Positions 27,158 to 44,098 of a stretch of DNA of 64,000 nucleotides are shown here, one piece after another. The translations under genes were made by a program, and so were the position numbers. The DNA comes from Chlorobium sp. (GTDB lineage Bacteria; Bacteroidota; Chlorobiia; Chlorobiales; Chlorobiaceae): contig SZXV01000011.1 in the NCBI GenBank assembly GCA_005862225.1, positions 62,001-126,000 on the forward strand, read 5' to 3'. Positions within the stretch are counted from its first letter, which is position 1; each line of letters begins with the position of its first letter. A model generated the notes under the pieces. It made no database searches. It was not told the origin of the DNA and worked only from the letters and a program-made list of their open reading frames with translations.

Positions 27158-28186
27158 ATGGAAGAGAGCATTCGCAGGTTACAGCAGGAGATTCTGGAGG
27201 TTGAGATAAAAGCGCAGGCCGATCTTGAAGCCTTCCGCCTCAAATACACGGTTCGAAAAGGGCTCATTGCAGCTCTTTTCGGCCAGCTCAAGTCGGTTGA
27301 CCCTGCTGACAAGCCGCGAATTGGTCAGTTGCTCAACCAGCTCAAGCAGACGGCTGATGCAAAGCTCACCGAAGCGGAGGAGCGACTTGCATCAACCGAA
27401 AGCAGCAGCAGCACCAAAGGCATTGACCTCACTCTCCCCGGACGACGCTCCTTTACCGGCAGCGAACATCCGGTACAGAAGGTGCTCGGCGAGATGAAGC
27501 AGATCTTTTCAGCCATGGGATTCGGCATAGCAACCGGCCCCGAACTGGAGCTCGACAGCTACAATTTCGACATGCTGAACTTTCCGCCCGACCACCCCGC
27601 TCGCGACATGCAGGACACCTTTTTCGTCACCAGCGGCAACCCCGGCTCCGACGTGCTCCTCAGAACCCACACCTCCCCGGTGCAGGTGAGAGTCATGCTC
27701 GACCAGAAACCGCCGATACGGGTGATCTGCCCCGGAAAGGTCTACCGCAACGAAGCGATCAGCTCCCGAAGCTACTGCGTCTTCCACCAGCTCGAAGGGC
27801 TCTACATCGACAAGAAGGTCTCCTTCGCCGATCTCAAAGCCACCATCTACTCCTTCGCCAAACAGATGTTCGGCACCGACGTCAAACTCCGGTTCCGCCC
27901 AAGCTTTTTCCCCTTCACCGAACCATCAGCCGAGGTCGACGTCACCTGCTACCTCTGCGGCGGCAAGGGATGTAAAGTCTGCAAAAAATCAGGCTGGCTC
28001 GAAATCATGGGCTGCGGCATGGTACACCCCAACGTCATGCGCAACTGCGGCATAGACCCCGAAGAGTGGTCAGGCTACGCCTTTGGTATGGGCGTTGACC
28101 GCACGGTGCTGCTGAGGTACAAGATTGATGATATACGGTTGCTGTTTGAAAATGATTTGCGGATGTTGAGGCAGTTTGGGGCGTAG
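27158..28186 (+). CDS. pheS: Phenylalanyl-tRNA synthetase alpha subunit
   Basis: 342 residues from ATG at 27158; an upstream in-frame start at 27107 lies inside rplT and is not used. The N-terminal coiled coil (20-90) binds tRNA. The class II core has [29 protein letters not shown] in parts, [10 protein letters not shown] (motif 1 side) and [12 protein letters not shown] (motif 3). It also has a [17 protein letters not shown] insertion with four cysteines, common in this family. pheT is not adjacent; the next gene converges from the opposite strand at 28202. This marks the left edge of the accessory island. Confidence 0.97.
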
Positions 28187-28201
28187 AGATTGCAGGAAAA
28201 G

Positions 28202-29845
28202 CTACTTCGCCCACCTTCTTTGCCATTCTGATTCAGTTGTTCCAACTCTTGAAACATTTTTCCCATAACTATGAGCTAACCTAAGTACAAGTTCACTTTT
28301 AAGCGTTGCAATCCATTCATATTTTTCAGATGTTGCATTGGTGAATACCCACTGGTTATGGTCCTTGATTGCGTGTATTGGTGTTTGAGCTTTTTGAGGG
28401 GTGAAATTCAATGTGCGAATCTCGAAAGCCTTGTCATTAATCTTTAGGGTTAAAGCATCAGACTGACCGTTAGCAATACATATATCAAATCTGTCTTTAT
28501 TTAAAAGTAGAGGAAGGAAAAGAAAATGCCTGCCTGCTTTCGGTATTCGAACACAATCACATGCAGGCTGAATGCAAATCAAGTACTTTATTGTACCATC
28601 TTCAAAAGTCTGGCTAAGAATGGTTCCTGATTCTAACGTTGGGGTTGAAGACTCATAAGAAGTTTTACACGATAACATATAGGATAGGTCCCTGTCAAGA
28701 CTCATTGCCTCCTCTGGTTTCTCGGCAAATATTGCAGTTATTTCACTCAATACAGATTTATTTTTTTCGTGCTTTAAATTGCTAATCTGTTTATAGAATA
28801 ATTTATTTTTTTTATCTAACTTTGCTTCGCTTACTCCGTTTTTAAGGAGTTTCAATAATTGCTCTTTTGCATGTTCGTTGCTTTTATTGACATGTATTCT
28901 TGTTCGAAATTTAATGCCGTTTTTATTTTGTTCTTCAATCCAAGATTCTGCTGCCATATAATTAGCTTGTGAGGCGACATTATCCTCTTCAAGAATTCCT
29001 TGAATATGGGAAACAATTAACTGAACGAGTTGCCTTTCAGCCTCTTCAGGTGGTGCGCTCATAATCTTATGAGAAAGGTATGCGGCATCAAGTCTACTTG
29101 GAAATTGCGCAATAAGTTTATGTGAATTATTTCTAAGTGCAGTTAATGCAGCTAAGGCGGTATTCGGAAGGAGCCCATTTACTGATTGTGAAAAGAAAGA
29201 AATTAACTTTGCAGGAAGTTCTTTTTCATTAACAACAGATCCTATAAAGTGGTCTGGGATGCCATGCTTTTCTTTCGCATAAATAATAATTGTGATAGAA
29301 TGATATCGCAAACAAAGTTCTTGATCATTCTTATCAAAATCCAATTTGTGCCGTTGTTCAATATGGTCATGTATTGCAGCAGATATTGAGCTTAAATCTG
29401 GTGATGCAGTATAAATAGATATTAACCGAAACCGTTGTGGTGATTTCAAATCATCACTCAACAGTCTTGAAATTAAGTTAAGAGCGTTTATGCCTGTTTT
29501 TTCTTTTTCCATTTCCCAGTCAATAATTACAATATCCGCTCTTTTTGCTGTTTTTATGAATGCAATCGAGTCGTTTTCATAATCTTTAAAGTCAAGAGCC
29601 CCACAGATAATTCCATGCTCAGCAAAGCTTTTAGTTAGGGCTTGAGCATCCAAGCCGCATTCTTTAATGGCTGTTTTTTTGGGGAACCAATCTTTTAATA
29701 GTGACGTCTGGCTTCTTCCTGGTGTTTCTGAAAGAATCTTTGGCTCAACAGGGTTTTTTAAAAGCAGTTTATCATCAATAATAACTGCTGTTTGTAGAAA
29801 TTCGCTACAAACTTTCAACGATCTCTCAGAAAATCTATTAGTCAT
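28202..29845 (-). CDS. Receiver-domain protein of the methyltransferase/GHKL operon
   Basis: 547 residues. The first 170 form a divergent response-regulator receiver: paired acids D24-D25 in AVIIDDK, phospho-acceptor D109 in DIVIIDWEME and T146 in ISIYTASPD. An insertion of about 40 residues follows the acidic pair. The remaining 370 residues match no effector domain that I can name. They include a Lys-rich helical section (300-370) and a C-terminal beta-rich part with YLICIQPACDCVRIPKAGR. It starts in a TAATG overlap with the kinase-like gene and has AGGAGG. It is probably the output protein of a phosphorelay within this operon. AT-rich compared with pheS. Confidence 0.7.
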   Translation of the reverse strand: MTNRFSERSLKVCSEFLQTAVIIDDKLLLKNPVEPKILSETPGRSQTSLLKDWFPKKTAIKECGLDAQALTKSFAEHGIICGALDFKDYENDSIAFIKTAKRADIVIIDWEMEKEKTGINALNLISRLLSDDLKSPQRFRLISIYTASPDLSSISAAIHDHIEQRHKLDFDKNDQELCLRYHSITIIIYAKEKHGIPDHFIGSVVNEKELPAKLISFFSQSVNGLLPNTALAALTALRNNSHKLIAQFPSRLDAAYLSHKIMSAPPEEAERQLVQLIVSHIQGILEEDNVASQANYMAAESWIEEQNKNGIKFRTRIHVNKSNEHAKEQLLKLLKNGVSEAKLDKKNKLFYKQISNLKHEKNKSVLSEITAIFAEKPEEAMSLDRDLSYMLSCKTSYESSTPTLESGTILSQTFEDGTIKYLICIQPACDCVRIPKAGRHFLFLPLLLNKDRFDICIANGQSDALTLKINDKAFEIRTLNFTPQKAQTPIHAIKDHNQWVFTNATSEKYEWIATLKSELVLRLAHSYGKNVSRVGTTESEWQRRWAK

Positions 29846-32796
29846 TATTTATCCTCCTCTTGGTAGAGAGCGATCCTAAAGGTAGCTCCTTTTTCGGCTT
29901 TTTGTTGATCAAGGATAAGTGTATAGCCTACTCTCTGGAGCACATTGCGTGATATGTACAAACCCATTCCGCGGCCACCTGGTTTTCTTGTAAAACCTAG
30001 TTCAAAAATTGATTCTCTATCTCGTCCTGAAATTCCCGGCCCAGTATCACTTATGATCATATCATCGCCATCAATATCTAGTTGAATAATTTTTTCTGCA
30101 GTTCTATTTTTCAACCAAAAAATTGCATTATCCACAAGATTAACAAAAACGGGATAAAAGGAAGAAGGATATCCTGTAACTGACTTATTAAGAAATGCTT
30201 TACTTGACTTTATTTCTATTGAATGCCGTTTTAATCGTTCGCCAAAAAGATCGTTTAAGTATTTGCTAATATCTGCCCCTTCAAATGTAGTCTCTGTCCT
30301 ATAAAGCCGGCGATGGAGGGGAGTAAAAAGTGTAAGGTAACTATCCAAATGGTCGAAGCTATCTCGTATGCCTGAGTATACTTCCTCTAAGCCTTCGTTG
30401 AGGTCTGCCCATGCTTTTAGTTCACGAAGTCGATTCCTGACTCCTGTGATGCTACTGTTAAATTCATGATTGATCACTTCGATCGCCATACCCATTTGGG
30501 TAAGCTGTAGGTCAGCATCAGCAGCCTCTTCCAGTGTAATAACTTTTTGCTCTAAGGCCTCTAGTTGATCAAGTTGTGTGATATCTCCATCAAGTCGGAT
30601 CGCATCAAGTTGGTTTCTTATCCCAATTAGAAAATTACCTTCTCGAGTAGAAACATCCTCAATTTGTAATTCCAATTGGGTTCGTTTTTCGACAATCTTA
30701 TCATCTGGGAATTCTGTAATGTTCAAGCTGTTAAATTCACTGAAAACCTTTGCGATTTCGTCTTTTACATTTGAAAAACTCATAGAAATCGCTTTCTTGG
30801 TTTCAGCTGCAACAGTGAGTAGTGACTCCCGTGTTTTCTTTGTTTCTATATTTGTCAATGTTGTCGCTTCTTTTTCACAAGCCTTAAGAGCATTTTCAAT
30901 TCTTAACCTGCGATCGAGCTCAAGTCTGGCTTCTTTTGCTGCTGCAGTAATTTCCTGTTCTATTAGTTCCTGTGTTGGTTGAAATACTTTTTCTAGAATA
31001 CCGATCATTGCATTTTCATAATCAACCCAGTCTTTGAGTGTTTTATTTGATAACCCTATTTTAGGTTTCGTAATCTTATATTTTGAAATGAGTTCTCTGA
31101 GCTTCTGAACTGATTGTTCTTCTATGATCATCAGCTCTTTTGCCGCTTGATGAGGATTCTTTATTTCTCTAACTCTGTTCAAATTTTGTGTTAATTGTTC
31201 CGTGATTTTAATTGCATCCTTTTCTGGTGCAGACTCGTCATATAATCTAAAGAATCTCTCCAGTTCTGATTCAAATTGTCCTTTTCGCACAGAAATAAGC
31301 CTTGCTCTCTTTTCTTCTGCTTTGTGTAACTTCCTAAAATGATCTTTTTTATCAATAAATTGGCCTGCCTTAGCTCCACCCTCCCTAAAGAAGTCTGCAG
31401 CCAATTGAAGGAAGAAATTTTCTAAAATACTTTTTAGTTGTCGGTATGCGATATTTTCAGAAAATCCTTCTCGTCCAGCCTTCTCCTTTAAATCAGGGTT
31501 ATTTTCATTTGAGATTTCTATAGCTCCAAAAATACGCCTATGTGAAAAGTGATAAAAACTTGCGGATTTTGTTCTTCTATACTCCATGCCGACCCAGTCG
31601 TAGTCTGTATCCCCATAAGGAAGAATGCGGATTCCGTTTTTGAAAACATAGAGGCCCCCTTGTCGATCCATCTTTGTCGTCAGAGCATTCCACTCTTCCA
31701 TTGGTATTGTGCTTTCTCGCAAGTTTCCTTGTACATCAGCAAAAGCAATTTTAAACGGACCGCATTTAGTTACCATCCCTTGGCTTTTCCATGGTACTAC
31801 ATGATTTTTATATTCCTCACCATATATTGATATGGTTCCTTTAAACTGACCATATTGATCGAATTCACCGGTGATATGATGGTCAGCGTTAATAAATTCA
31901 GTAGGTGTAAAAAATCTATTTTTATCAATCAGATCAACAAATATTGTATCTGTTGAATAGTCCCGAAACGCACAATCTATTACAGGTTGTTCATGACCTG
32001 GTGTCATTGTATTTGTAAAACCAAGCAGTGCCTTTTCCAATGGTGATGCTTTTTCTTTAGAACTTCCTACAATATCGGCAATCAATAATTCTGTTGCAGG
32101 TTTAATAATAAATTGAGTTCCTGTCCCACCATATCTCAAGGATAGGCAGTCAGTGTTTTTCAGGTAGGCATCGATGTCGAAAGGGTTAACAGTAAATGAT
32201 AACAACTCTAATTCAATTCTTTTTTTTATCTTCTCATCTTCTTTTTTTATTTGTTTTAAATTAGTTTTGAATTCATCAACCATTTCAAGAATATCTTCTC
32301 CAGTTGGTAATGTATCTCCAGTAAATTCTCTTATAGGTATATCAATGTCCTCCAGGTTTATTCCAGGAACCTCGAAGATGCCCCAGTTTAAAAACGCAGC
32401 GATTAAATTATGCGATTTTCCATCACGTTTTGCTCTGGTCATAACGAGCACTTGTGGACCAATGATGGCAATAGAAAGACGCCCTATTCCTTTTTCTCCA
32501 AGCATTGGGCGCCTTTTCTTTGTGGGGAAGGGTTGAAGAATAGGCATTGCATTGGAGTTTAACTTACTTTCTGTTCCAATTGTCAGCCATCTGCTCTCAA
32601 ATTCTTCTCGTGTCATCCCGATTCCATTATCTCGTAAAACGAAGAGTAGATCTGATCTGTAAAAGTCGATTTCTACGTTGTCCGCGTAAGCATCATGGGC
32701 ATTCTTAAAGAGTTCACTAATAGCTGTAGGGATGCCAGCGATTTGCTGACGTCCCAGCATATCAACAGTGCGTGCTCTTGTCTTAAATTTTGCCAT
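29845..32796 (-). CDS. Protein with two GHKL ATPase domains: MORC-like and histidine-kinase-like
   Basis: 983 residues from ATG at 32796. The N-terminal GHKL fold is of the Hsp90/MutL/MORC kind: N-box ELFKNAHDAYAD (28-39), DNGIGM (56-61) and GEKGIGRLS near 100. A long helical and coiled-coil centre follows. An H-box-like ALE-VINHEFNSSI region comes next, with H777. The C-terminal kinase ATPase has NLVDNAI (886-892), DTGPGI (917-922), GFTRKPGGRGMGLYI (932-948). So it may both act as a conformational ATPase and phosphorylate the receiver protein encoded next. Its start overlaps the methyltransferase stop by 14 bases, so coupled expression is likely. MORC-like GHKL ATPases are known around restriction-modification systems; having both ATPases in one chain is less usual. 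Confidence 0.8.
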   Translation of the reverse strand: MAKFKTRARTVDMLGRQQIAGIPTAISELFKNAHDAYADNVEIDFYRSDLLFVLRDNGIGMTREEFESRWLTIGTESKLNSNAMPILQPFPTKKRRPMLGEKGIGRLSIAIIGPQVLVMTRAKRDGKSHNLIAAFLNWGIFEVPGINLEDIDIPIREFTGDTLPTGEDILEMVDEFKTNLKQIKKEDEKIKKRIELELLSFTVNPFDIDAYLKNTDCLSLRYGGTGTQFIIKPATELLIADIVGSSKEKASPLEKALLGFTNTMTPGHEQPVIDCAFRDYSTDTIFVDLIDKNRFFTPTEFINADHHITGEFDQYGQFKGTISIYGEEYKNHVVPWKSQGMVTKCGPFKIAFADVQGNLRESTIPMEEWNALTTKMDRQGGLYVFKNGIRILPYGDTDYDWVGMEYRRTKSASFYHFSHRRIFGAIEISNENNPDLKEKAGREGFSENIAYRQLKSILENFFLQLAADFFREGGAKAGQFIDKKDHFRKLHKAEEKRARLISVRKGQFESELERFFRLYDESAPEKDAIKITEQLTQNLNRVREIKNPHQAAKELMIIEEQSVQKLRELISKYKITKPKIGLSNKTLKDWVDYENAMIGILEKVFQPTQELIEQEITAAAKEARLELDRRLRIENALKACEKEATTLTNIETKKTRESLLTVAAETKKAISMSFSNVKDEIAKVFSEFNSLNITEFPDDKIVEKRTQLELQIEDVSTREGNFLIGIRNQLDAIRLDGDITQLDQLEALEQKVITLEEAADADLQLTQMGMAIEVINHEFNSSITGVRNRLRELKAWADLNEGLEEVYSGIRDSFDHLDSYLTLFTPLHRRLYRTETTFEGADISKYLNDLFGERLKRHSIEIKSSKAFLNKSVTGYPSSFYPVFVNLVDNAIFWLKNRTAEKIIQLDIDGDDMIISDTGPGISGRDRESIFELGFTRKPGGRGMGLYISRNVLQRVGYTLILDQQKAEKGATFRIALYQEEDK

Positions 32797-33889
32797 TAAT
32801 TTCTTCAATATGTTTGACGAAATGGTTGCCCATCGCAAAGGATAGATCAACAGGGACAGCGTTTCCTATTTGTTTTGCCATAGAGTTAAGGTTCCCTGTA
32901 AATTGAAACTGGTCATCAAATCCCTGTAAGCGAGCAGCTTCTCTAATGCTTATAGCTCGATCTTGTTCAGGGTGTCCAAACCTGCCGTTAGAATAACTTA
33001 TACAGCGGGTTGTTAGGCCAGTTGCTGGTTTGCTCCACCAGAGCCGCCCATAACAATCTGTATGACCAGAATGTTTTTTTCCTGACAAATTAGTTCGAGA
33101 ATAGCAATCTGGCCAGAGTGACTTTGGCCAGTTATTTCTACCCCCTCCATCAGGGGAAGATGCTTTAATTCTCATCATATTAAGTTCAGACAAATTGGCA
33201 GCTCGGTGATTTTGTATAAACGAATCTATATATTCTTCTCCTGCAGTTATAGGCGGTAGGTCTTCAATAGCATCACGAACAGTTTTGTAGGGCTTCTCAC
33301 GACTTTGACCGTGGGTTGGGGTTGGTAAGTTTATAGGCCAGTGTTTACTTGCCAACAATACAAAACGTCGACGAAGTTGTGGTGTACCATAATCCTGGGC
33401 AGCAACCACACCGCAGTCCATTTTGTATTCTAATCTTTCAAGTAGTCTTTTAAATTCTGGGTATGGGCCTTGCTCGTGTGTAGGGACTTTCTGTAAACCA
33501 GGAACATTTTCTATAAACACAAAATCTGGCTTGTATTCTTCGATTATCTGTCCGAACCTCGTTAATAAGTTTTTGCGTTTATCGAGTAAAGGGCTTTCTG
33601 TTTTTTGCTTAGTAAATGGCTGGCAGGGAGCACATCCACAGAAAAGCTTATAACTGTCGTTATATTTGTCAATAACGGGTTGCAAATCAAAAGATGTGAG
33701 ATTTGTAATACTCTTGTGACAAAATACTGAATCTGGAAAGTTTAGGCTAAAAGTGTTCTTGACATCTTGGTCTATATCCAATGCAAAAACAATATCTATT
33801 CCAGCTTTTTGAAACCCTCTACTTGTCCCGCCACAACCACAAAAGAAGTCAAATGCGGCTATTTTTTTATTTTTTCTTATTTTAGCCAT
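32783..33889 (-). CDS. DNA (cytosine-5) methyltransferase
   Basis: 368 residues with the C5-methyltransferase motifs in order: FDFFCGCGGTSRGF (SAM binding), CAPCQPF with catalytic C89, FIENVPGL, QLRRRFVLLA, a target-recognition stretch of about 90 residues, and QIGNAVPVDLSFAMG. It should methylate cytosine at an unknown site. It is the first gene of the three-gene operon and overlaps the GHKL gene. No restriction nuclease is recognised beside it. AT-rich codon use suggests acquisition by transfer. Confidence 0.93.
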   Translation of the reverse strand: MAKIRKNKKIAAFDFFCGCGGTSRGFQKAGIDIVFALDIDQDVKNTFSLNFPDSVFCHKSITNLTSFDLQPVIDKYNDSYKLFCGCAPCQPFTKQKTESPLLDKRKNLLTRFGQIIEEYKPDFVFIENVPGLQKVPTHEQGPYPEFKRLLERLEYKMDCGVVAAQDYGTPQLRRRFVLLASKHWPINLPTPTHGQSREKPYKTVRDAIEDLPPITAGEEYIDSFIQNHRAANLSELNMMRIKASSPDGGGRNNWPKSLWPDCYSRTNLSGKKHSGHTDCYGRLWWSKPATGLTTRCISYSNGRFGHPEQDRAISIREAARLQGFDDQFQFTGNLNSMAKQIGNAVPVDLSFAMGNHFVKHIEEINGKI

Positions 33890-34363
33890 TTCCGCAACCT
33901 GTAAATAGCATCCCTGTTATAATGTTTTCCTTTAAAAAAATAGTTTAGCTTGTAAATTGCCTGCGCTCCGCTGTTTTATTTCCTTCTCGAAGTACATTTA
34001 ATATAAACTTTGTCGCCCCACTAAAACACCTATTTATCACATCTTTATTAAGTATGAGCCGTTCATCTTATGGTCGGCTTCGCTAATTTTAGTCTGAGTA
34101 TAGTAACCGGTATTTTAAATGTAAAAAATTCTAATACGATACAGCTGGTTTTAAATTTATCTCTTCTAGTACAATAGTTTCATATATCCCTGTTAAAATT
34201 ACAGTTTCTTCTGTCAGGGGAAGCTTCTATATATAAATATCCTTCAACCAATTATATTATAAGCAATTATGGCAACCTTTGGCATACCGCTGTTCATCCT
34301 TTTCTGTTTCCCTGATAGGGCTGCCCAAGATGTTTCGTTATGTTACGCGTATCAGTACACTAC
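33890..34363. other. AT-rich gap without a recognised gene
   Basis: 474 bases upstream of the methyltransferase. It should hold the operon promoter, but no candidate stands out. It ends at the resolvase remnant. No tRNA, repeat or full ORF was seen. Confidence 0.5.
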
Positions 34364-34612
34364 CTATAATCCCAGATATATATAATAGCTTGCCCGTGAA
34401 ATCTTCAGCGTTGTACAGATTTCACCGACACTGATGCTCATGTTTTTGCTCATTTTTCTTCCCATCTGCACTTTCGGATCATCTTTCGAGATTTTCGGCC
34501 TTCCACCTTTTATTCTCCTCGCCCTTGCTGCCGTCAGGCCTGCCTGAGTGCGTTCATGGATCAGACGGCACTCAAATTGATCCAGAGAGGTACCAAACCT
34601 TATGAAATTCAA
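34364..34612 (-). pseudogene. C-terminal remnant of a serine resolvase/invertase
   Basis: An 82-codon ORF starting only at a TTG. It matches the end of Tn3-type resolvases: the E-helix LIHERTQAGLTAARAR, the linker KGGRPKIS and the helix-turn-helix ISVGEICTTLKISRASYYIYL. The N-terminal catalytic domain, with its active serine, is missing. It is a leftover of a transposon or invertase module and supports past mobility of this region. Confidence 0.75.
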
Positions 34613-34783
34613 ATAAACCGGCAGGATGTGATCGCAGCAATAACTTCGTTTTCAACTTTAAACATGATAATATATTTTATCAGAACTAAATAGCTTCATT
34701 ATGTCCTATAATCCAAAATCACGGAAATAGGATAAATATGAGACTATTTCTGAGATCATCACATTGTTCAGTCCATCCCCTTT

Positions 34784-36076
34784 TCAATCCTGAACAAGCT
34801 CACCCATCTCCAAAAACTTCCCCCTGCACCTGTACTCATAGCTGCAGTCAATCCCAACCAGCCCGCTTTTGATCAGATGCGCATTGACAAAGGTCTTGTT
34901 CTCCAGATAGAGGTAACAGAGCAGGACGTTTTCTTCGTCATGTTTCAGCTTGTCATACTTCAGGAAGATACGCTTTCCCTTGATTTTTTCGGTCAGATAC
35001 CCGACTGCTTTGTCGTGCGTGAAGGGTTCGCTCTTGATGCCGATCAGTTTTACTGTCAACCCGTTGGATAGCCTCACTTTTTCGGGACTGAGTATCTCCT
35101 TGACCGTGAAGAACTCTTCGCGCTCTGCCTCGCTCTCTTTCTCAATCCTGGAGCCAAAAGTGAGTTTTCGGGGATCTGTTTTTTTATCGAGCTTGTGGGG
35201 ATCTTTGAACTGGTAGGGCAACTGCTCAATGGCTGCGGTAACATCGCCCTTGACCGTGTCGTGCAGAAACTCGTATTCCGTGCCCATAAAATCGGGCTGC
35301 CGGGTGTTGAGCTTCTGTTTGGCAATCTCGATAAACTCCCGATTGATTTCGTACCCGACCGAGTTTCGTTCGAGATTCTTTGCGGCAAGTGAGGTTGTCC
35401 CGCTGCCCATGAAAGGATCGAGCACCGTATCGCCACGAAAGGCGAACATTTTGATGAGCCGGTGCGGAAGCTCTTCGGGGAACATGGCAAGATGCCCCTC
35501 CTGTTTTGCTCCGGCAAAGTTCCAGTGGCCCGAGAAGTAGGTGTTCCACTCCTCGGTGGTCATGGCTGAGCGCTCTTTCTGCTCTTTGGTGGGCTTTGGA
35601 GCGTCGCCCTGTTTTTTGAAGATGAGAATGAACTCGTAGTCAAGCTTGAGAATGCCGTTGCGGGGGTAGGGAAAGCTCCCCATGATTGAGGCACCGCCGG
35701 TGGTGTTGGTTGTGGTGACCTTCTGCCAGATCACCGCGCCCATGTAGTCGAACCCGATGGTCTCGCAGAACTTGATGATCTCCGTCCGGATGGGAATCAC
35801 CTTGTACCTGCCATAGTAGACCGAGCGGGCAAACTGGTCGCCGATGTTGATGCAGAGACGGCAGCCGGGATGCAGCACCCTCTCGCATTCGTTCCAGACA
35901 AGGTTCAGGTTGTTGATGTAGCTCTCGTAACTCTCGTGAAAGCCGATCTGCTTCTCCGTCCCGTAGTCCTTGAGCTGCCATTAGGGTGGCGAGGTGACAA
36001 CAAGATGCACCGACCTGTCAGCGAGGAGGTTCATCTGTCGGCTGTAGCCGTGGATTATGGTGTGGTGGCTCTTCAA
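34784..36076 (-). pseudogene. DNA methyltransferase (beta class) with SNase-like domain, broken by a stop in the SPPY motif
   Basis: Read from TTG at 36076, the frame has 431 codons with one internal TAA at codon 32 (35981-35983). This codon is the Tyr of catalytic motif IV: VVTSPP-stop-WQLKDYG. The rest is intact: HPGCRLCINIGDQF and DPFMGSGTTSLAAKN (SAM-binding motif I), so motif IV comes before I, as in N4-cytosine/N6-adenine enzymes. The last 100 residues (VRLSNGLTVKLIGIKSEPF...CYLYLENKTFVNAHLIKSGL) resemble a staphylococcal-nuclease fold, but the arginine expected near D-x-x-G-R is absent. A protein restarted at ATG 35878 would lack motif IV. Two fragments of the same gene lie at 37473 and 39221. 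Confidence 0.82.
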
Positions 36077-36152
36077 GATGCTGTTGGGTGTATGGGTTTC
36101 CTGACCATGCTGCAGAGCGCCCTGCCTGTGGATCTCCTTTCAACGTTATCAC

Positions 36153-36920
36153 TCATGCAGCCAAATCATCCCGATAGTTTTCTCTCTGGGACCAAAGAAG
36201 AGGTTTCAGATCGTAATTTCTCAAAGCATCAACTACCGATGATGAGACAATGGAACCTGTATCATTGAGAAATACGTAAAGCCGGGAATCGGACGCTCTG
36301 GTCTCTTTTGTGTCAAACCATTTAAAAACGAGCGCTTCTGCAGATTCCTTCCTCGGGTTTGCTATTGCCTGAACAAGCCGTTCAGGCTGTTTCCTTGATT
36401 TTGGTATGACAAAATCGAACATGTGGTCATAACCGCTTTTACCTGTAAATTTTATCTTTGGGGTATATCGAATATCTGACAGCTCAAACCAATTGGTTAC
36501 ATCTTCGACAAAAAGGCTTGCAACAAATGGCGATGCCAGATAAAAAAGATCGTTTACCGCCAGCATAGCCTGAATGATTGTGTGCTTTTTAAGCGAAAAG
36601 TTTTCGGGCGTTGTATGAACAATCAGTTGATCGTTGTCAAGCTGCACACCAAAACCAGCCAAAGTGGTTTTAAGCAGATCCTGACGTTTTGGGCTATCAA
36701 GCTGGCAACCAGAACTGACAAGATCACTCATGGTGTACCCGTCATCGGTAAGCATATAGCCAGCTCCTTCTTTTCGAGCATATATCTGCAAACAATCGTT
36801 ATGGCGGTCAATGTAAGGAGTGGTTATTTCAACCCAGTCCGCACAAATCTGTTTGACAATGGTTTTGTCTTTGAGCCACTGAGTATATTTTTCGAGTAAA
36901 GTATTGATTTCTGCAATCAT
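36153..36920 (-). CDS. DUF1828/DUF1829 protein
   Basis: 255 residues from ATG at 36920, overlapping the previous gene's stop (ATGA). The N-terminal half has the DUF1828 signature: ITTPYIDRHNDCLQIYA and GYMLTDDGYTMSDLVSSG. The C-terminal half fits DUF1829 (FTGKSGYDHMFDFVIPKSRKQPERL). The biochemical function is unknown. The pair with the DUF6978-like gene upstream suggests one module, possibly toxin-antitoxin or defence, but this is not shown by the sequence. Confidence 0.75.
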   Translation of the reverse strand: MIAEINTLLEKYTQWLKDKTIVKQICADWVEITTPYIDRHNDCLQIYARKEGAGYMLTDDGYTMSDLVSSGCQLDSPKRQDLLKTTLAGFGVQLDNDQLIVHTTPENFSLKKHTIIQAMLAVNDLFYLASPFVASLFVEDVTNWFELSDIRYTPKIKFTGKSGYDHMFDFVIPKSRKQPERLVQAIANPRKESAEALVFKWFDTKETRASDSRLYVFLNDTGSIVSSSVVDALRNYDLKPLLWSQRENYRDDLAA

Positions 36921-37360
36921 GTGAATAACTCCTGAAGAATAATCGGTTTGGTAATCACCGCGCAATAATCCATAAACTCATGCAATATTTGCCAGGTATT
37001 CGTACTGTTTGAAAACTGGTTCGGTAATGGAATTGCCCATTTATCCCCGTGACCTTCTCTATAAACATGAAGATGCGGGCATGGCATTTCCTCTCCATCT
37101 GGATTCCTGTGTGGTGCACCTCCAATATCAATGCGCGCAAGAACAATGGCCCTGTGTGCCCGAAGTTGAAATGTGTTTTTTTTCAGCTCAATACGGCCAC
37201 GGGTAATGTCAAGGTTAAACTCTTCCCGCATAGCCAAAGAATGCAATGGAATTCGCAATGCACCTCCGAGGCTTGGAAAGGTAAAACTTTCAGTCCCTGT
37301 ATAATGCTTTTCTATCGAAAGTAATGCATCGGCTTCTTGCTGCATCAAAATAAAGCTCAT
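36917..37360 (-). CDS. DUF6978-like protein, partner of the DUF1828 gene
   Basis: 147 residues from ATG at 37360 (MSFILMQQEADALL); an upstream start at 37402 is possible. Conserved-looking stretches are FPSLGGALRIPLHS, EEFNLDITRGRIELKK, GGAPHRNPDGEEMPCPHLHVYREG and DKWAIPLP. The HRNPDG...CPHLH cluster of His, Asp and Cys could bind metal, which is my inference. It is translationally coupled to the DUF1828 gene. The function is unknown. Confidence 0.65.
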   Translation of the reverse strand: MSFILMQQEADALLSIEKHYTGTESFTFPSLGGALRIPLHSLAMREEFNLDITRGRIELKKNTFQLRAHRAIVLARIDIGGAPHRNPDGEEMPCPHLHVYREGHGDKWAIPLPNQFSNSTNTWQILHEFMDYCAVITKPIILQELFT

Positions 37361-37472
37361 CAGCACTCTGTGAATAATTTTTCCAACGGGAGAAAAATAC
37401 ACAATTCTTGTCAGTTTTGTGAGCTTGAAATGAGGAAAAAAAGCAGGATGCTTATGTCGTCATGCTTCTGCC

Positions 37473-37526
37473 CTCCTTCCGAATGGGAATGACCTTGTAC
37501 CAGCCATAGTAGACCGAGCGGGCAAA
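37473..37526 (-). repeat. Small fragment of the methyltransferase gene
   Basis: About 54 bases match 35785-35838 of the methyltransferase pseudogene (codons around VYYGRYKVIPIRTE) with a few mismatches. It ends three bases before the stop of the next gene. It is too short to code and marks a recombination footprint. Confidence 0.8.
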
Positions 37527-37529
37527 AAA

Positions 37530-37811
37530 TCAGACTAACTCAATCCTGAATTTTTCCCCAAGGACAGATGCCGCGCTGGAAAGGGTTGTCAGAGTAAGAC
37601 TGGTATCAGTTGCATCAAGCAGACGGTTGAGTGCTGCCCGACTGGTCTGCATTTTGCTCGCCATTGAAGATTTCGTCAGGTGCTGTGCTTTCATTTCCTG
37701 AGCAATTTGCCAGGCAATAACGCGCTTGACGGCCACCGCAGTTGCTTCGTCGAGAAGAGCCTCTTCTTCAAGAAATTCATCGAAATTGCTGCCAATATTT
37801 TTTTCATTCAT
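37530..37811 (-). CDS. Helix-turn-helix antitoxin-like protein (HigA type), orphan
   Basis: 93 residues. The acidic N-terminus (MNEKNIGSNFDEFLEEEALLDE) is followed by an XRE-type helix-turn-helix: VIAWQIAQEMKAQHLTKSSMA, then TSRAALNRLLDATDTSLTLTTL, ending LGEKFRIELV. This family normally accompanies a RelE/HigB-like toxin. Upstream on the same strand only a short open stretch ending VEQLRSLTCNWQKAE is seen, which I cannot assign. It abuts the methyltransferase fragment. Confidence 0.75.
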   Translation of the reverse strand: MNEKNIGSNFDEFLEEEALLDEATAVAVKRVIAWQIAQEMKAQHLTKSSMASKMQTSRAALNRLLDATDTSLTLTTLSSAASVLGEKFRIELV

Positions 37812-38129
37812 TTTATGTTCCTCATTCTGCTTTTTGCCAATTGCAGGTCAGACTTCGGAGTTGCTCCACGCCTGTGATAAAAAACCTGACTTCAAGTGTT
37901 GGGTTATTCATCAAGCAATGCATCAAAATAAGTACACTATAACAAATGAGCGTTCAGGATTGAGGCACCGATATTCATCCTGGATTTACTCTTTTTGAGT
38001 TCTTTGTGGTTTATGTTAGATTCGACCAAAGGATTGGGCTTTTCCTGGTCGACAAAATGGCTTTGGACATTATCCGAGGCCATTCTGTTTTTAAGGAAAA
38101 ATCTTTTTCCACCACCGTCCCCTTAATAG
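37812..38129. other. Gap between two antitoxin genes
   Basis: 318 bases with no intact gene. On the minus strand, about 37848-37910 could be the end of a degraded coding sequence just before the antitoxin, and TTGTTATAGTGTAC near 37940 could give a -10 box (TATAGT). Neither is firm. Confidence 0.35.
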
Positions 38130-38204
38130 GTTGCCCTTTCCGACGACAACCTTGAAAAATTAATTCAGACAGGCGCCTTCATGGCTGTAACATGTTATGA
38201 GTAA
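38130..38204 (+). pseudogene. C-terminal remnant of a RelE/HigB-type toxin
   Basis: 24 codons after an in-frame TAG read VALSDDNLEKLIQTGAFMAV then TCYE and stop. The pattern, with L-x-x-L-I-x-x-G-x-F near the end, resembles the tail of RelE-like toxins that precede this antitoxin type. The stop TAA overlaps the antitoxin ATG (ATGAGTAA), the usual toxin-antitoxin junction. The rest of the toxin gene is gone. Confidence 0.5.
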
Positions 38205-38520
38205 AGCTACAACATATAAAAGCGATGCCCTCGCGGCGGTTCATGAAACAGCTTCAGATATGTTCGAGGCTGGCGTGATTGACAAACAGACAATGTGTCA
38301 CTTCGACGAATCTTGCTTGACACCGATTCACCAATTCAGCGCCGATGAGATCAAGGCATTGCGTGAACGTGAAGAGGTGAGCCAGAGAGTTTTTGCTCAC
38401 TATCTGAACATGACAAAGGAATCAGTCAGTCAATGGGAACGCGGACAAAAGAAACCCGCCGGAACAACATTGAAACTTCTTTCTCTTGTAGAACGGAGAG
38501 GAATTAGCGCTATTGCCTGA
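38197..38520 (+). CDS. Helix-turn-helix antitoxin (HigA/NadS type)
   Basis: 107 residues. The N-terminal half is SKATTYKSDALAAVHETASDM. An XRE helix-turn-helix follows: SADEIKALREREEVSQRVFA, then LNMTKESVSQWERGQKKPAG. It likely represses its own operon and neutralised a RelE-type toxin. That toxin now survives only as the 24-codon tail upstream. Confidence 0.8.
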   Translation: MSKATTYKSDALAAVHETASDMFEAGVIDKQTMCHFDESCLTPIHQFSADEIKALREREEVSQRVFAHYLNMTKESVSQWERGQKKPAGTTLKLLSLVERRGISAIA

Positions 38521-38542
38521 GACTGCTGTCATCATAGTATAA

Positions 38543-38831
38543 TCACTCTTGCAGAGTAAAAAGGTGCTCTATATCGCGAGCACAGTGCAACACCCTGACA
38601 ATCTCTATTCCACCCGAAATACTGAGATAAAAAATCATATACCAACCAAAAGGAAAGCTTAATAAACCTGGCAAAAGCTCCATACGTGATCGCCCTGCAT
38701 GGGGAGATTCCGCCAACTCATTAATTTTAATATCAATAGAGTCTATAAAGGGATCTGCACAAGCTTGACTGTCTTCAGCTATATAATGCGAGATCTTCTA
38801 ACGCAAGTGGCCGGATGATTATTTCTGGCAT
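38543..38831 (-). pseudogene. parE: ParE toxin gene, frameshifted
   Basis: Read from ATG at 38831: MPEIIIRPLALEDLA. The frame then hits TGA (LYS-stop). Shifting by one base restores a ParE protein: YIAEDSQACADPFIDSI, then ELAESPHAGRSRMELLPG, then FGWYMIFYLSISGGIEIVRV and LHCARDIEHLFTLQE. The break falls just after the DL segment that comes before YIAED in ParE proteins. The gene begins at the parD stop. The toxin is therefore inactive unless the shift is a sequencing error. Confidence 0.82.
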
Positions 38832-38832
38832 A

Positions 38833-39099
38833 TCATCCAACTGTTTTGCTTGTGGTTTTTCTTTTTCGGGCAGCTCTCTTTATCTCGTCAGCATCCCAAA
38901 CTGTGGCAGGCCCGCTCTCTATTCCTGCACGTATATCCTGACGTAACTGGCCAAACTTTGCTTGACGAAGAGAGTCCTGCTCTCCCATAAGACGCAACGC
39001 TTCACGAATAACCTCGCTTGCTGAGGTATAAAGTCCTGACTTCACTTTCTGCCGAACCATCTCTTCAAGGAGCGGGGTCAGATTAACATTAATCGGCAT
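38833..39099 (-). CDS. parD: ParD-family antitoxin
   Basis: 88 residues. A ribbon-helix-helix N-terminus (MPINVNLTPLLEEMVRQKVK, then SGLYTSASEVIREALRLM) is followed by a charged tail (DIRAGIESGPATVWDADEIK) that binds the toxin. It precedes the broken parE in the normal antitoxin-first order. It would still act as a DNA-binding autorepressor. Confidence 0.9.
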   Translation of the reverse strand: MPINVNLTPLLEEMVRQKVKSGLYTSASEVIREALRLMGEQDSLRQAKFGQLRQDIRAGIESGPATVWDADEIKRAARKRKTTSKTVG

Positions 39100-39220
39100 G
39101 GCTTCATTTTTATGTTCTCAAGCTATCACGGATACCTCTCAATAACTTTGCTACTGGCAATTTATGCCAATTATTGACAAATATACAATAACGTCAGTCC
39201 CTTTTTACGCACCTATTAAT

Positions 39221-39530
39221 CAAGCTTGAGAATGCCATTCCGGGGATAGGGAAAGCTCCCCATAATCGAAGCGCCGCCGGTGGTGTTGGTTGTGGTGACC
39301 TTCTGCCAGATCACCGCGCCGAAGTAGCCGAACCCGAGGGTCTCGCAGAATTTGATGATCTCCGTCCGGATGGGAATGACTTTGTACCTGCCATAGTAGA
39401 CCGAGCGGGCAAACTGGTCGCCGATGTTGATGCAGAGACGGCAGCCGGGATGCAGCACCCTCTCGCATTCGTTCCAGACAAGGTTCAGGTTATTGATGTA
39501 GCTCTCGTAACTCTCGTGAAAGCCGATCTG
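39221..39530 (-). repeat. 310-base fragment of the methyltransferase gene
   Basis: Aligns without gaps to 35641-35950 of the methyltransferase pseudogene. I count 15 mismatches over 310 bases, about 95% identity. It covers the codons from QIGFHESYES to NGILKLD, so it lacks both the SPPY region and the C-terminal half. It ends nine bases before the stop of the ATPase gene. Confidence 0.95.
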
Positions 39531-39539
39531 GTTCCTTGT

Positions 39540-40709
39540 TTATTCTGGCTCTGCCCATTTTGCGCAGTCGCGCCAACTCATGATTTTGACACCGTTGCGC
39601 TCATAGGAATCGTCACCTCCATAGATCAGCCAGGGCTGAAGCGCCTCTTCTCCAGCAAATCGTGCTGCTTTGAGACCTGCGCGGATAGAGTCGCCGGTGA
39701 TGGTCTGGCCTGATTTTATTTCAACCGGTTGCAGTTTTGTGCCACGTTCAAAAACAATATCCGCTTCAAGGCCGTTATTGTCACGCCAGAAGTAGAGATC
39801 AAGAGGCAGCCCCCGGTTATAGCGGGATTTGAGAAACTCGCTGATAATGAATGATTCAAAAATTGCTCCTCTCATGGGATGCAGAGCAAGGTGTTCATGC
39901 GAACGGATACCAAGCAGCCAGCAAGCGAGACCCTGATCCAAAAAATAGAGTTTTGGCGTTTTCACAAGTCGCTTTCCGAAGTTTCGAAAGTATGGCGGGA
40001 GCAGATGGACAATGTAGCTTGATTCCAGAACCGAGAGCCATGAACGGGCTGTTTTCTGTGAAACACCTGTTTCACCCGCCAGTGCATTAAGGTTCAGCAG
40101 TTGTCCGTTTCGCCCTGCACAGAGGCGCACAAAGCGCTGGAATACCGATAAATCATGAACTCGTAACACCTGCCGGATATCCCGCTCGATATAGGTAGCG
40201 ATGTAACTTGCAAACCAGTCTGCAGGCGATATATCCCTCACATGAAGAGCAGGATAAGAACCCTTTATGATCAGCGTGTCAAGCGATAGTGACGATTGCG
40301 ATGCTGCCGGAAGTTCTGAAATGGACAAGGGAAGCAAAGCAGTCATACCAACGCGACCGGCAAGTGACTGACTGACTCCGGCGAGCAGTCCGAATTGCTG
40401 AGAACCGGTCAGAATGAATTTTCCGGGAATCGGATCATCATCAACCATACCCTGAAGGAATGAAAAGAGATCCGGCCATCGTTGAGCTTCATCGAAGAGG
40501 GCTCCATCACGAAACCGGTGAAGGAACCCTTTTGCATCTTCAAGGGCAAAGGCACGTTCTGCAGGGTCTTCAAGGGTTATGTATGGCTTATCGGCAAAAA
40601 CTGCTTTTGCCAGCGTTGTTTTTCCTGACTGCCGAGGCCCGGTTATTGCGATAACAGGAAATGTTCTTGCCAACCGCTGAAGGGTTGCTGTCAGTTTGCG
40701 GTAGATCAT
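39540..40709 (-). CDS. AAA ATPase with DUF4143 domain
   Basis: 389 residues. The N-terminal AAA domain has Walker A ITGPRQSGKTTLAK (residues 21-34), Walker B ALFDEAQRWPD and LTGSQQFGL (sensor region). The DUF4143 C-terminal half includes LSVLESSYIVHLLPPYF and the nuclease-like segment FWRDNNGLEADIVFERGTKLQPVEIKSGQT. The latter has the E-x-D...E-x-K pattern of the PD-(D/E)xK fold. The cellular role of this widespread accessory family is not established. Its 3' end abuts the methyltransferase fragment. A TTGCGA/TCGCAA inverted repeat near 40726 could be an operator. Confidence 0.85.
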   Translation of the reverse strand: MIYRKLTATLQRLARTFPVIAITGPRQSGKTTLAKAVFADKPYITLEDPAERAFALEDAKGFLHRFRDGALFDEAQRWPDLFSFLQGMVDDDPIPGKFILTGSQQFGLLAGVSQSLAGRVGMTALLPLSISELPAASQSSLSLDTLIIKGSYPALHVRDISPADWFASYIATYIERDIRQVLRVHDLSVFQRFVRLCAGRNGQLLNLNALAGETGVSQKTARSWLSVLESSYIVHLLPPYFRNFGKRLVKTPKLYFLDQGLACWLLGIRSHEHLALHPMRGAIFESFIISEFLKSRYNRGLPLDLYFWRDNNGLEADIVFERGTKLQPVEIKSGQTITGDSIRAGLKAARFAGEEALQPWLIYGGDDSYERNGVKIMSWRDCAKWAEPE

Positions 40710-40839
40710 AGGATATTATACTAATTGCGAATTGAAATCGCAAATTGTATAGTTTTTTCCGACACACCGCACTGGCATTGCTACTCGAAAAAGCTTGCGA
40801 TTAAACCCTGCTTCAGGATATAATTGGACAAGCTGCGGC

Positions 40840-41172
40840 TTAAGCAGGTGGATTCGCCCCTGACAAGAGCTTCAGCCCAAGCACTCCGGCAAAAATCAGC
40901 AACAGACAGAGAATCCGGGCAATGTCACGCGGTTCGTCAAACAAGATCATACCGAAAATGGCCACCCCGGTGGCGCCTATTCCTGTCCAGACGGCATAAG
41001 CTGTGCCAACCGGAATGGTTCTCATAGCCAGTGAGAGCAACCAGAAACTTGCAATCATGGCGGCGCCCGTCAGAACCGAAGGGATTGGACGGGTAAAGCC
41101 TTCAGTGTATTTGAGGCCTACCGCCCAGCCGCACTCCAGACAACCGGCAATGATCAGGTAAATCCATGGCAT
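40840..41172 (-). CDS. Small multidrug-resistance family exporter, Gdx/SugE type
   Basis: 110 residues with four hydrophobic helices. The essential E13 sits in [20 protein letters not shown], and [16 protein letters not shown] is also typical of the Gdx (guanidinium exporter, formerly SugE) branch rather than EmrE. It should exchange guanidinium for protons. It lies 12 bases after the Gfo/Idh gene and is probably cotranscribed with it. Confidence 0.88.
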
Positions 41173-41184
41173 TGGGTTTTGCAG

Positions 41185-42318
41185 TTAAATTTTCACCCAA
41201 CGGTGAAGTTTATGAGATTTTCGGCCAGCCTGCAAGACTTTCTGGATCATAAGTCCATCAGAAAAACCTGCTGCATCGTGGACGATTCTCTCGTTTTTCT
41301 TGAGTGCTTTGACAATCCGGTGTGCAAGAAAGGCAAATCCGACAGCAAAAATACCGTGCACGGCCAGTGATGACTGCCTGATTTTTTCCTGTAAAACCAG
41401 CTCATCCCACGGAAGCATTGGTTCAATCAGCTTCCAGCGAGGGGCGTCAATGAGGCTGCGTCCCCCTTTGGCGTTGTCGTTGTCAATTTCCCAGAGCCTT
41501 CCGGCGCCATCAAGTCTGATGGTTTTGAGACTGCCGACCACTTCAAACGAAAACCAGGTGTATGCGCCAACGGTGGTAACGTGCATCAGGGAGGAGCTTC
41601 CGAGGGCAACGGATGATGCGCCGAATTTCATCATCATGGCGAAATGGTCATCTGAGGTGACTGCGCAAGGCTTGCCTGACTTGTCGGGACGAAACGGAAT
41701 GCTGGTCGCGAGGTTACATGAGACCTCCGAAATTTCACCAACCAGAAACCGGTTCATATCGACCAGATGAGAGCCGATAGCGCCGAGGGCTCCCCCGCCT
41801 TTTTCAGCATCACACCACCATGACCATGGCATCTCCGGCCTGTTGCGACTGGACAGATTGACCACTGCACGCACTTCGTACACTTTTCCTATTTCACCCC
41901 CGTCAATCATCTGTTTCATGCAGCGTACTGCGGGATGAAACCGGAGCTGATGGTCAATGAGCGCAAACCCTGGAGCAGAGGAGGCTGCCGCAACCATGGA
42001 GGCGGCATCATCGACATTGAGCGCAAAGGGTTTTTCACAGAGCACGCTCTTGCCGCTTTCAAGCACCGCATTCACCATTTCAGTATGGAGAAAAGTCGGT
42101 GTGGTCACGCAGATGAAATCGAGGTCGCACGTCAGAAGGTCGCGCCAGTCGGCAAAACCCTTGCTGATATCAAACATCTTCATGAACTTCAGGCGGTGCT
42201 GCTCAGTGGGACTTGCAACGGCTGAAAGCTCAACATTTTCCATCAGTGAAAATGCCGGCGCCTGTGCCACTTTTGCCCAACCACTCCCGATAAACCCTAT
42301 TTTTATCTTTTTTTGCAC
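41185..42318 (-). CDS. Gfo/Idh/MocA-family oxidoreductase
   Basis: 377 residues. The N-terminal Rossmann motif is [14 protein letters not shown]. The family EKP motif is in VLCEKPFAL, and the second domain begins [20 protein letters not shown](P)-dependent oxidation or reduction of a sugar or related compound is expected; the substrate cannot be told. It has an AT-rich upstream region of about 100 bases. Confidence 0.88.
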
Positions 42319-42416
42319 TCTCTTTTCAATATATATCTATATTTTTAAATACTTTATACGAATAATAAACGAATACTTAGATATCTAATTTTGCGAAAAC
42401 TTCGCGAATCATAGTA

Positions 42417-42536
42417 ATGACTCTTTTTATTCAGGATAAAGAACTTTCAGCGATACAAGCTTGTAAACGACTTTCCTGCCATAGAAATTCTCTTAAAAAA
42501 TTAAGGCAAGAAAAGCATATTACATCTACAGTATAA
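42417..42536 (+). CDS. Possible 39-residue helix-turn-helix peptide
   Basis: An ORF that reads MTLFIQDKELSAIQACKRLS and then CHRNSLKKLRQEKHITSTV. The stretch LSAIQACKRLSCHRNSLKKL has the spacing of a helix-turn-helix, as in small excisionase-like proteins, but it is short. An 8-base palindrome TTCGCGAA lies 12 bases upstream. No clear ribosome-binding site. It may be a remnant. Confidence 0.3.
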   Translation: MTLFIQDKELSAIQACKRLSCHRNSLKKLRQEKHITSTV

Positions 42537-42687
42537 GGCTAATATTTTATTTCCTCTAAAAAAGTACATTTTTACCTTTTAAACTTTGATTCAAGGTGTG
42601 TCTGGAAAAGCTGATCGTTCTTCAACAAACTAACAGTGTCGATTGTCTTGTGTGAATTATGCATTATCGGGTAAAATGAGACTTTGG

Positions 42688-43074
42688 TTATTGGTTGACT
42701 CTTTTTTTGATGGTATCGAGGAGTTTGTTGACTTCGAGGAGCTCTTTGTTCATGTCGATGGCTTTGTTTTGGAGCAGCTGGATTTTTTCGGTGCACTGGG
42801 TAAGTATGACGGTCAGTGTCTGATCGGGTGGCGGGGCTGGTAGTTCCGGGGCTCCTTTTTTGCCGTAGAGAATGTAGTTGACGTCGATGCCGACGGCTTC
42901 GAGTTTTTCGCGCAGGATGTTGCCGATGCGGTTTTTGCCGGTGACGTAGGCGGTGATATAGGAGGCGTCTTTAGCTCCTATGGCCTGGCAGAGTGCCACC
43001 TGGGTTTTGAATTTCTTCTTTATCTCTCCCCTGAGTCGTTTGGCTTCGTCGGTGTACGCGCCTGATACAGGCAT
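42688..43074 (-). CDS. XRE-like helix-turn-helix protein with coiled coil
   Basis: 128 residues. Residues 8-75 look like a phage-repressor-type DNA-binding domain (FKTQVALCQAIGAKDASYIT, then GKNRIGNILREKLEAVGIDV). A proline-rich linker (PELPAPPPDQ) and a C-terminal coiled coil (TEKIQLLQNKAIDMNKELLE) follow. It is transcribed away from the terminase-like gene at 43261, so the two could share a control region. Probably a mobile-element regulator. Confidence 0.6.
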   Translation of the reverse strand: MPVSGAYTDEAKRLRGEIKKKFKTQVALCQAIGAKDASYITAYVTGKNRIGNILREKLEAVGIDVNYILYGKKGAPELPAPPPDQTLTVILTQCTEKIQLLQNKAIDMNKELLEVNKLLDTIKKRVNQ

Positions 43075-43260
43075 ATATCTACATTTAATCCATTATTTTG
43101 CTTGCCTTTGGTAGATAATTATATCCAATATTGAGAATAAAAGCAAACAAAGAGTACGAAAGATAACGAATGATAAGGATAAGCAAGGGAACGGGCGGAG
43201 GGAAAAAATGGATAGTTCTTTCTCTATTTTCCCATTTTCCCGTATAAAAAAGGGTATGTG

Positions 43261-43590
43261 ATGCCTGCTGCGAAGATTACGGGGGAGATTACCGGGTGCA
43301 TTGTTGATGCGCTTGGTGCGGGTCATTATCGGGAGGTGGCTTGCAAGCTGGCGGGGATTGACCGGAAGACGCTCTTGAATTGGCTGAAGCGAGGTGAGCG
43401 GGAGCGGTCTGGTTTGTATCGGGAGCTTTATCTGGCGGTTGAGCGGGCAGAGGCGAAGGCGGAGGTGTTTAACCTGAAGAATATCGAGACGGCTTCGCTG
43501 AAGAACTGGTTTGCGTCGGCCTGGTTTCTGGAACGGAAGCATCCTGAGCGGAATCGGTTGTTTGTTGATGTGATATTTAGTGGTTCTTAA
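43261..43590 (+). CDS. Phage terminase small-subunit-like helix-turn-helix protein
   Basis: 109 residues from ATG at 43261 (GTG at 43258 is an alternative). It has a homeodomain-like helix-turn-helix: AGHYREVACKLAGIDRKTLL, then NWLKRGE. AVERAEAKAEV and WFLERKHPERN follow, a pattern seen in phage small-terminase-like proteins. No large terminase or other phage gene is near. A lone phage remnant is the best reading. Confidence 0.65.
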   Translation: MPAAKITGEITGCIVDALGAGHYREVACKLAGIDRKTLLNWLKRGERERSGLYRELYLAVERAEAKAEVFNLKNIETASLKNWFASAWFLERKHPERNRLFVDVIFSGS

Positions 43591-43702
43591 GCTATTGACT
43601 ACAACAACAATTCACGCATTGCTTTCTTTACATGTTAACGGTGCAAATAACCGACAGCAAAAAGCGAGTAGCGGTTTTTGCTGCCCGAGTTGATTTACCC
43701 TG

Positions 43703-44098
43703 TTAGCTGTTTTCCCAACTTCCCACACCTTCTGCTAAAATTTTTGTTATTAGATTTTTAAACTCTTCATCACCTCTGTAAAATCGGACAAGGCGTCTAG
43801 ATGCTGTTTGATGGATATCTGTGCTTTCCTCGGCTATCAAATAGACCGGTTTCCCTAATGCTTCCGCCAAACCTAACTCGTAGTAACAACTAGGACGTTC
43901 TAAAGATAAATCGGCGAGAACAAAGGATGCGCCTTTGAGATTTTGAAGAGTGGCCTGTAAATTAAAGACAGGATCTTCTGTTGCATATCGAGGAAAATGG
44001 GGCTTAATTGCCGTAAATTCAGTTATTCCTTGAATCATTGCCTGTTTGCGAACGGCATCAGGATTGGAGCCAACCGGCATTATTATTTGAAAATACAT
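43703..44098 (-). CDS. Nucleoside deoxyribosyltransferase/TIR-like protein
   Basis: 131 residues. The core ASFVLADLSLERPSCYYELG, then LAEALGKPVYLIAE has the D-(x)n-N/C-x-x-Y-E-x-G layout of the nucleoside 2-deoxyribosyltransferase-like fold, in which the Glu is catalytic. The same fold family includes TIR-like NAD-cleaving or nucleotide-sensing proteins. It lies 11 bases after a two-helix membrane protein gene on the same strand, so the two form a probable operon. Function is inferred from the fold only. Confidence 0.6.
   Translation of the reverse strand: MYFQIIMPVGSNPDAVRKQAMIQGITEFTAIKPHFPRYATEDPVFNLQATLQNLKGASFVLADLSLERPSCYYELGLAEALGKPVYLIAEESTDIHQTASRRLVRFYRGDEEFKNLITKILAEGVGSWENS

What the first reader, a model, noticed from the sequence alone, without database searches (positions are those of the whole stretch)
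35981..35983. Stop codon exactly at the catalytic Tyr of a methyltransferase
The frame reads VVTSPP-TAA-WQLKDYG. A single base (TAC or TAT to TAA) turned the SPPY motif tyrosine into a stop. The rest, 430 codons, is intact. This looks like a very recent loss, or selection against the activity, or a phase-variable or miscalled base.
Basis: seen in the sequence. Interest (0 to 1): 0.6.

Follow-up and report, generated by a model that had tools for sequence, protein, structure and literature searches.

The report
Broken leftover DNA methyltransferase gene
A green sulfur bacterium carries a dead copy of a DNA-methylating enzyme gene whose restriction-enzyme partner is already gone; the stop codon at the catalytic tyrosine is genuine, also sits in a second dead copy elsewhere in the genome, and is one of many different breaks seen in copies of this gene across related bacteria, so it is ordinary decay.

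Summary
On the minus strand at 35983-35981 a TAA replaces the Tyr codon of the TSPPY motif (codon 32) in a TTG-started frame of 430 codons (36076-34784); the 398 codons after it are open. It is almost certainly not a miscall: a second copy on another contig of the same genome has the same TAA, plus an internal deletion and frameshift. All other copies checked have TAC or TAT there, including a relative that has the same DUF6978-DUF1828-MTase junction as the window (96% identical). The two TAA copies are nearly identical around the stop but diverge elsewhere, which points to exchange (gene conversion) between copies. The gene is the methyltransferase of an MjaI-family restriction-modification system. 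The genome holds no MjaI-family endonuclease and no intact copy of the methyltransferase; the window copy also has D11Y and lacks the leader seen at other copies. Other copies in the genus carry nonsense codons at eight other positions, so hitting the catalytic Tyr is probably coincidence (2 of 168 possible one-step nonsense changes). There is no repeat tract for phase variation. Verdict: ordinary decay of an orphan methyltransferase in a pheS-linked island of defence and toxin-antitoxin genes.

The parts
34784..36076 (-). Methyltransferase pseudogene (beta-class N6_N4_Mtase with C-terminal SNase-like domain), 430 codons from TTG, stop at codon 32
35981..35983 (-). TAA replacing the Tyr codon of TSPPY (motif IV); Tyr (TAC/TAT) in every copy checked outside this genome
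36044..36046 (-). Codon 11: GAC to TAC (D11Y in the HGDSR segment), private to this copy
36077..36152 (-). Junction between the DUF1828/DUF1829 gene and the MTase remnant; the leader found at many other copies is absent; the same junction occurs in G073 with TAC at codon 32
34615..34783 (-). 3' flank, only about 72% identical to the 3' flank of the C7 copy, so the two copies look like old paralogues
39217..39534 (-). Second partial copy of the MTase (95% identical; equivalent to 35637-35954), directly downstream of the AAA_14/DUF4143 gene; the same gene-fragment junction occurs in L041
37473..37526 (-). 54-bp scrap of the same MTase (93% identical)
36153..36920 (-). DUF1828/DUF1829 gene directly upstream of the MTase remnant
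36917..37402 (-). DUF6978 gene, part of the block shared with G073
27158..28183 (+). pheS; pheS or fragments of its 3' end lie near MTase copies in many other Chlorobiaceae genomes

Best explanation
This is a decaying orphan methyltransferase, the M gene of an MjaI-family (CTAG-type) type II restriction-modification system whose endonuclease is no longer in this genome. Without the endonuclease, loss of methylation is not lethal. A C-to-A change turned Tyr32 of the TSPPY motif into TAA, and it is now present in both large remnants (window copy and C7 copy), most likely by gene conversion between them. Translation from the TTG start would give only a 31-residue peptide; the 398 codons after the stop stay open because the break is young, not because they are used. 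Shown: the stop, its presence in two copies, TAC in the related block, absence of a detectable REase, other lesions. Inferred: order of events, gene conversion, absence of activity, and CTAG specificity (by family).
For: Same TAA in a second copy on another contig that also has a frameshifting deletion. TAC in G073, which shares the DUF6978-DUF1828-MTase junction. Window and C7 copies differ at 4 of 438 compared sites around the stop versus 35 of 581 elsewhere (Fisher p 9e-6, with the interval chosen after seeing the data; permutation of the two longest identical runs p 5e-5), and the stop is the only change found in both and in no other copy; their 3' flanks are only about 72% identical. No RE_MjaI family match in own genome and no match to the L041 REase, while REase genes adjoin intact M genes in relatives. 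Window-private changes are 4 amino-acid-changing and 1 silent, whereas divergence from intact copies over the post-stop frame has dN/dS 0.04-0.10, like intact pairs: constraint until recently, then relaxation. Nonsense codons in other copies at 34, 50, 88, 117, 175, 192, 320 and 415.
Against: Several relatives keep an intact M with no detectable full REase (G011, G051, G067, G052, G054), so losing the REase does not always lead to quick decay. Private-change counts are small. The direction of the exchange and its order relative to the C7 deletion are not resolved. No methylation, expression or read data were available.
Confidence: 0.88

Rival explanations
1. The TAA is a sequencing or assembly error and the gene is functional.
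For: One base; the frame is otherwise open.
Against: The same TAA stands on a second contig with different flanks and its own deletion. Short reads could cross-map over the 173 identical sites, but the base would still have to be real in at least one copy.
Confidence: 0.03
2. A shorter protein made from an internal start is kept for a non-enzymatic role (for example via the GTG at 35878, 364 aa).
For: The 398 codons after the stop are open with low dN/dS against intact relatives; an open 364-aa ORF exists.
Against: Such a protein lacks motif IV. Low dN/dS is expected if the break is recent. Window-private changes are mostly amino-acid-changing.
Confidence: 0.04
3. The change was selected because methylation became harmful, or is a reversible switch.
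For: The stop falls exactly on the catalytic residue.
Against: Nonsense positions in other copies are scattered; there is no repeat tract; any early stop would do; 2 of 168 possible nonsense changes hit this codon.
Confidence: 0.03

Closest known systems
M.MjaI / M.MthZI-type beta-class 4mC CTAG methyltransferases (described in PMC5867850)
   Same: SPPY motif IV; in related loci the gene sits next to a MjaI-family endonuclease gene (PF09568)
   Different: This copy has a stop at the Tyr of SPPY; the intact relatives are 430 aa with an SNase-like C-terminal domain, longer than the 303-364 aa reported for those enzymes; specificity was not tested and no direct comparison with M.MjaI was run
Putative modification methylase, PDB 2zie/2zif/2zig
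   Same: Closest solved relative of the intact homologue (E 3.5e-57), aligned through TSPPYW and the DPFMGSGTT segment
   Different: The match covers residues 5-263 only, so not the SNase-like tail; not disrupted
Orphan type II methyltransferases (PMC4752239; H. volcanii HVO_0794 in PMC5867850)
   Same: Methyltransferase without a cognate endonuclease in the genome
   Different: Those are active; this one is broken

Membership tests
PF01555 N6_N4_Mtase, beta class | Profile match over the curated cut-off | tested here: met
   136.2 bits (cut-off 26.7) for the post-stop frame; 158.4 bits for the intact relative
PF01555 N6_N4_Mtase, beta class | Intact catalytic motif IV (S/D-P-P-Y) | tested here: not met
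   SPP followed by TAA
MjaI-type restriction-modification system | Adjacent or genomic MjaI-family endonuclease | tested here: not met
   None in own genome by PF09568 or by REase protein search; present beside intact M in relatives
MjaI-type restriction-modification system | CTAG recognition, 4mC product | not testable with these tools
   Inferred from the partner family and PMC5867850 only
Phase-variable methyltransferase | Repeat tract or inversion able to switch the frame | tested here: not met
   No repeat at the site; no inverted repeats of 20 or more bases in 28000-44000
Pseudogene | Disabling lesion absent from intact relatives | tested here: met
   TAA in this genome only; TAC/TAT elsewhere
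Pseudogene | Relaxed constraint after the lesion | tested here: inconclusive
   4 non-synonymous and 1 synonymous private changes; numbers small

The most novel reading that the evidence does not exclude
Pieces of this methyltransferase gene (mostly its 5' end) and of the 3' end of pheS recur between toxin-antitoxin and defence modules in several Chlorobiaceae genomes and may act as shared homology that shuffles modules and spreads lesions such as this TAA by gene conversion. In addition, the same C-to-A change makes an overlapping ATG (TAATG) which, in the C7 deletion allele, opens a 308-codon frame covering the C-terminal part.
Probability: 0.2. Interest if true: 0.42.

Novelty: new member of a known kind. 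Interest (0 to 1): 0.16.

Why it matters
Mainly as a clean worked example: a methyltransferase that has outlived its endonuclease being lost, with the same lesion in two paralogous remnants. It also warns that an annotation pipeline could call the 364-aa remainder a methyltransferase although it lacks motif IV. The more useful by-product is the set of pheS-linked islands in Chlorobiaceae, strewn with fragments of this gene, which could be used to study how defence modules are shuffled.

Tried and rejected
Recent whole-gene duplication as the source of the shared stop: rejected because the 3' flanks are only about 72% identical and the G073 block already had this junction with TAC. Shared locus of C7 and the G011 copy: at first assumed from the matching leader (and so written in notebook entry 1), but only 67 bp of 5' flank match, so it is not claimed. 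Phage origin: no match in the phage collection. CTAG depletion as evidence of activity: 12 CTAG seen versus 50 expected in the window, but this is not specific. The serine-recombinase look of ORF 34364-34612 is by eye only; Pfam and NCBIfam give no match.

Full report
Observation. The minus-strand frame at 36076-34784 begins with TTG, runs 31 codons to ...HLVVTSPP, meets TAA at 35983-35981, and continues open for 398 codons.

What the gene is. The post-stop frame matches PF01555 N6_N4_Mtase (136 bits) with a weak SNase match at the C-terminus. An intact relative (L041, 430 aa) matches PF01555 over residues 23-254 and SNase over 328-420, and its closest solved relative is the putative modification methylase 2zie, aligned through TSPPYW. 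In L041 the next gene matches RE_MjaI, PF09568 (157 bits); similar ORFs follow the MTase in L043, L045, L051, L054, L055, L057 and L059 (by sequence likeness). MjaI-type methyltransferases with SPPY are described as beta-class 4mC CTAG enzymes in PMC5867850. CTAG specificity here is therefore an inference.

The stop is real and shared. The genome (2.5 Mb, 13 contigs; Chlorobiaceae, judged by the record titles of its closest relatives) has a second large copy on contig C7. It has the same TAA and an internal deletion that shifts the frame. In 105 aligned hits codon 32 is TAC (64), TAT (36) or TAA (5); the TAA hits are these two places only, fetched more than once.

Origin of the shared stop. 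G073 has the same DUF6978-DUF1828-MTase junction as the window, 96% identical over 1472 bp, with TAC; its contig ends inside the MTase. A chromosomal stretch near the window (40840-42400) is only 84% identical to G073, so this block was probably exchanged between lineages, and the TAA came later. Window and C7 copies differ at 39 of 1019 compared sites, but at only 4 of 438 between gene positions 32 and 736 (Fisher p 9e-6, interval chosen after seeing the data; permutation of the two longest identical runs p 5e-5), and codon 32 is the only site where both share a base seen in no other copy. Their noncoding 3' flanks are about 72% identical and their 5' flanks differ. Exchange between two old paralogues explains this best; the direction is not known.

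Why it was tolerated. No MjaI-family endonuclease was found in the genome by family or by protein search. In the genus, decayed or fragmentary M copies are common, with nonsense codons at 34, 50, 88, 117, 175, 192, 320 and 415 besides 32. Some genomes keep an intact M with no full REase, so decay after REase loss is common but not obligatory. In G016 the REase itself carries a stop beside an intact M.

Selection. Over the post-stop frame, dN/dS between the window copy and intact relatives is 0.04-0.10, the same as between intact relatives: most divergence accumulated under constraint. Changes private to the window copy are D11Y, P246R, A280T, S411C and one silent, which fits a recent release from constraint, with small numbers. 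The window copy also lacks the leader segment seen at many other copies.

Is the Tyr position meaningful? Of 168 single-base changes that would create a stop, 2 hit codon 32. An early stop anywhere would abolish the enzyme. I regard the position as coincidence.

Surroundings. The island follows pheS (27158-28183) and holds a cytosine-5 methyltransferase, a HEF_HK/HATPase protein, DUF1828/1829, DUF6978, HTH, ParD-like and AAA_14/DUF4143 genes. Other Chlorobiaceae genomes show pheS or pheS 3' fragments, 5' pieces of this MTase and similar modules in different order. How these arrays form is not resolved here.

Noticed in passing
L119 (G022:C13) and L122 (G017:C87): Arrays of MTase fragments, most beginning near the same point in the gene's leader, separated by small genes (macro-domain, nucleotidyltransferase, AbiEi-like, Schlafen/AlbA-like, HTH, ParD-like).
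   Followed up: partly
L119, L122, L041, L129, L155, L156, L145: Fragments of the pheS 3' end lie in the same islands, which suggests a pheS-linked insertion hotspot in Chlorobiaceae.
   Followed up: partly
L006 4308-5234 (C7 copy): The C-to-A change that makes the TAA also makes an overlapping ATG; with the C7 deletion this opens a 308-codon frame into the C-terminal part of the MTase.
   Followed up: partly
L141 7724-9377 (G069:C2): An MTase copy with the same internal deletion stands directly before a largely intact MjaI-family REase frame whose C-terminus differs; no intact M was found in that genome at E 1e-30.
   Followed up: no
window 29845-33889: HEF_HK/HATPase protein next to a cytosine-5 methyltransferase, resembling the restriction-linked kinase-like elements of PMC8011034 (abstract only).
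   Followed up: no
many loci, e.g. L119 4426/4421, L122 1912/1915, L124 7003/7012: One internal deletion of the MTase (window 35611-35877) with the same breakpoints and a short overlap recurs in copies from many genomes.
   Followed up: partly
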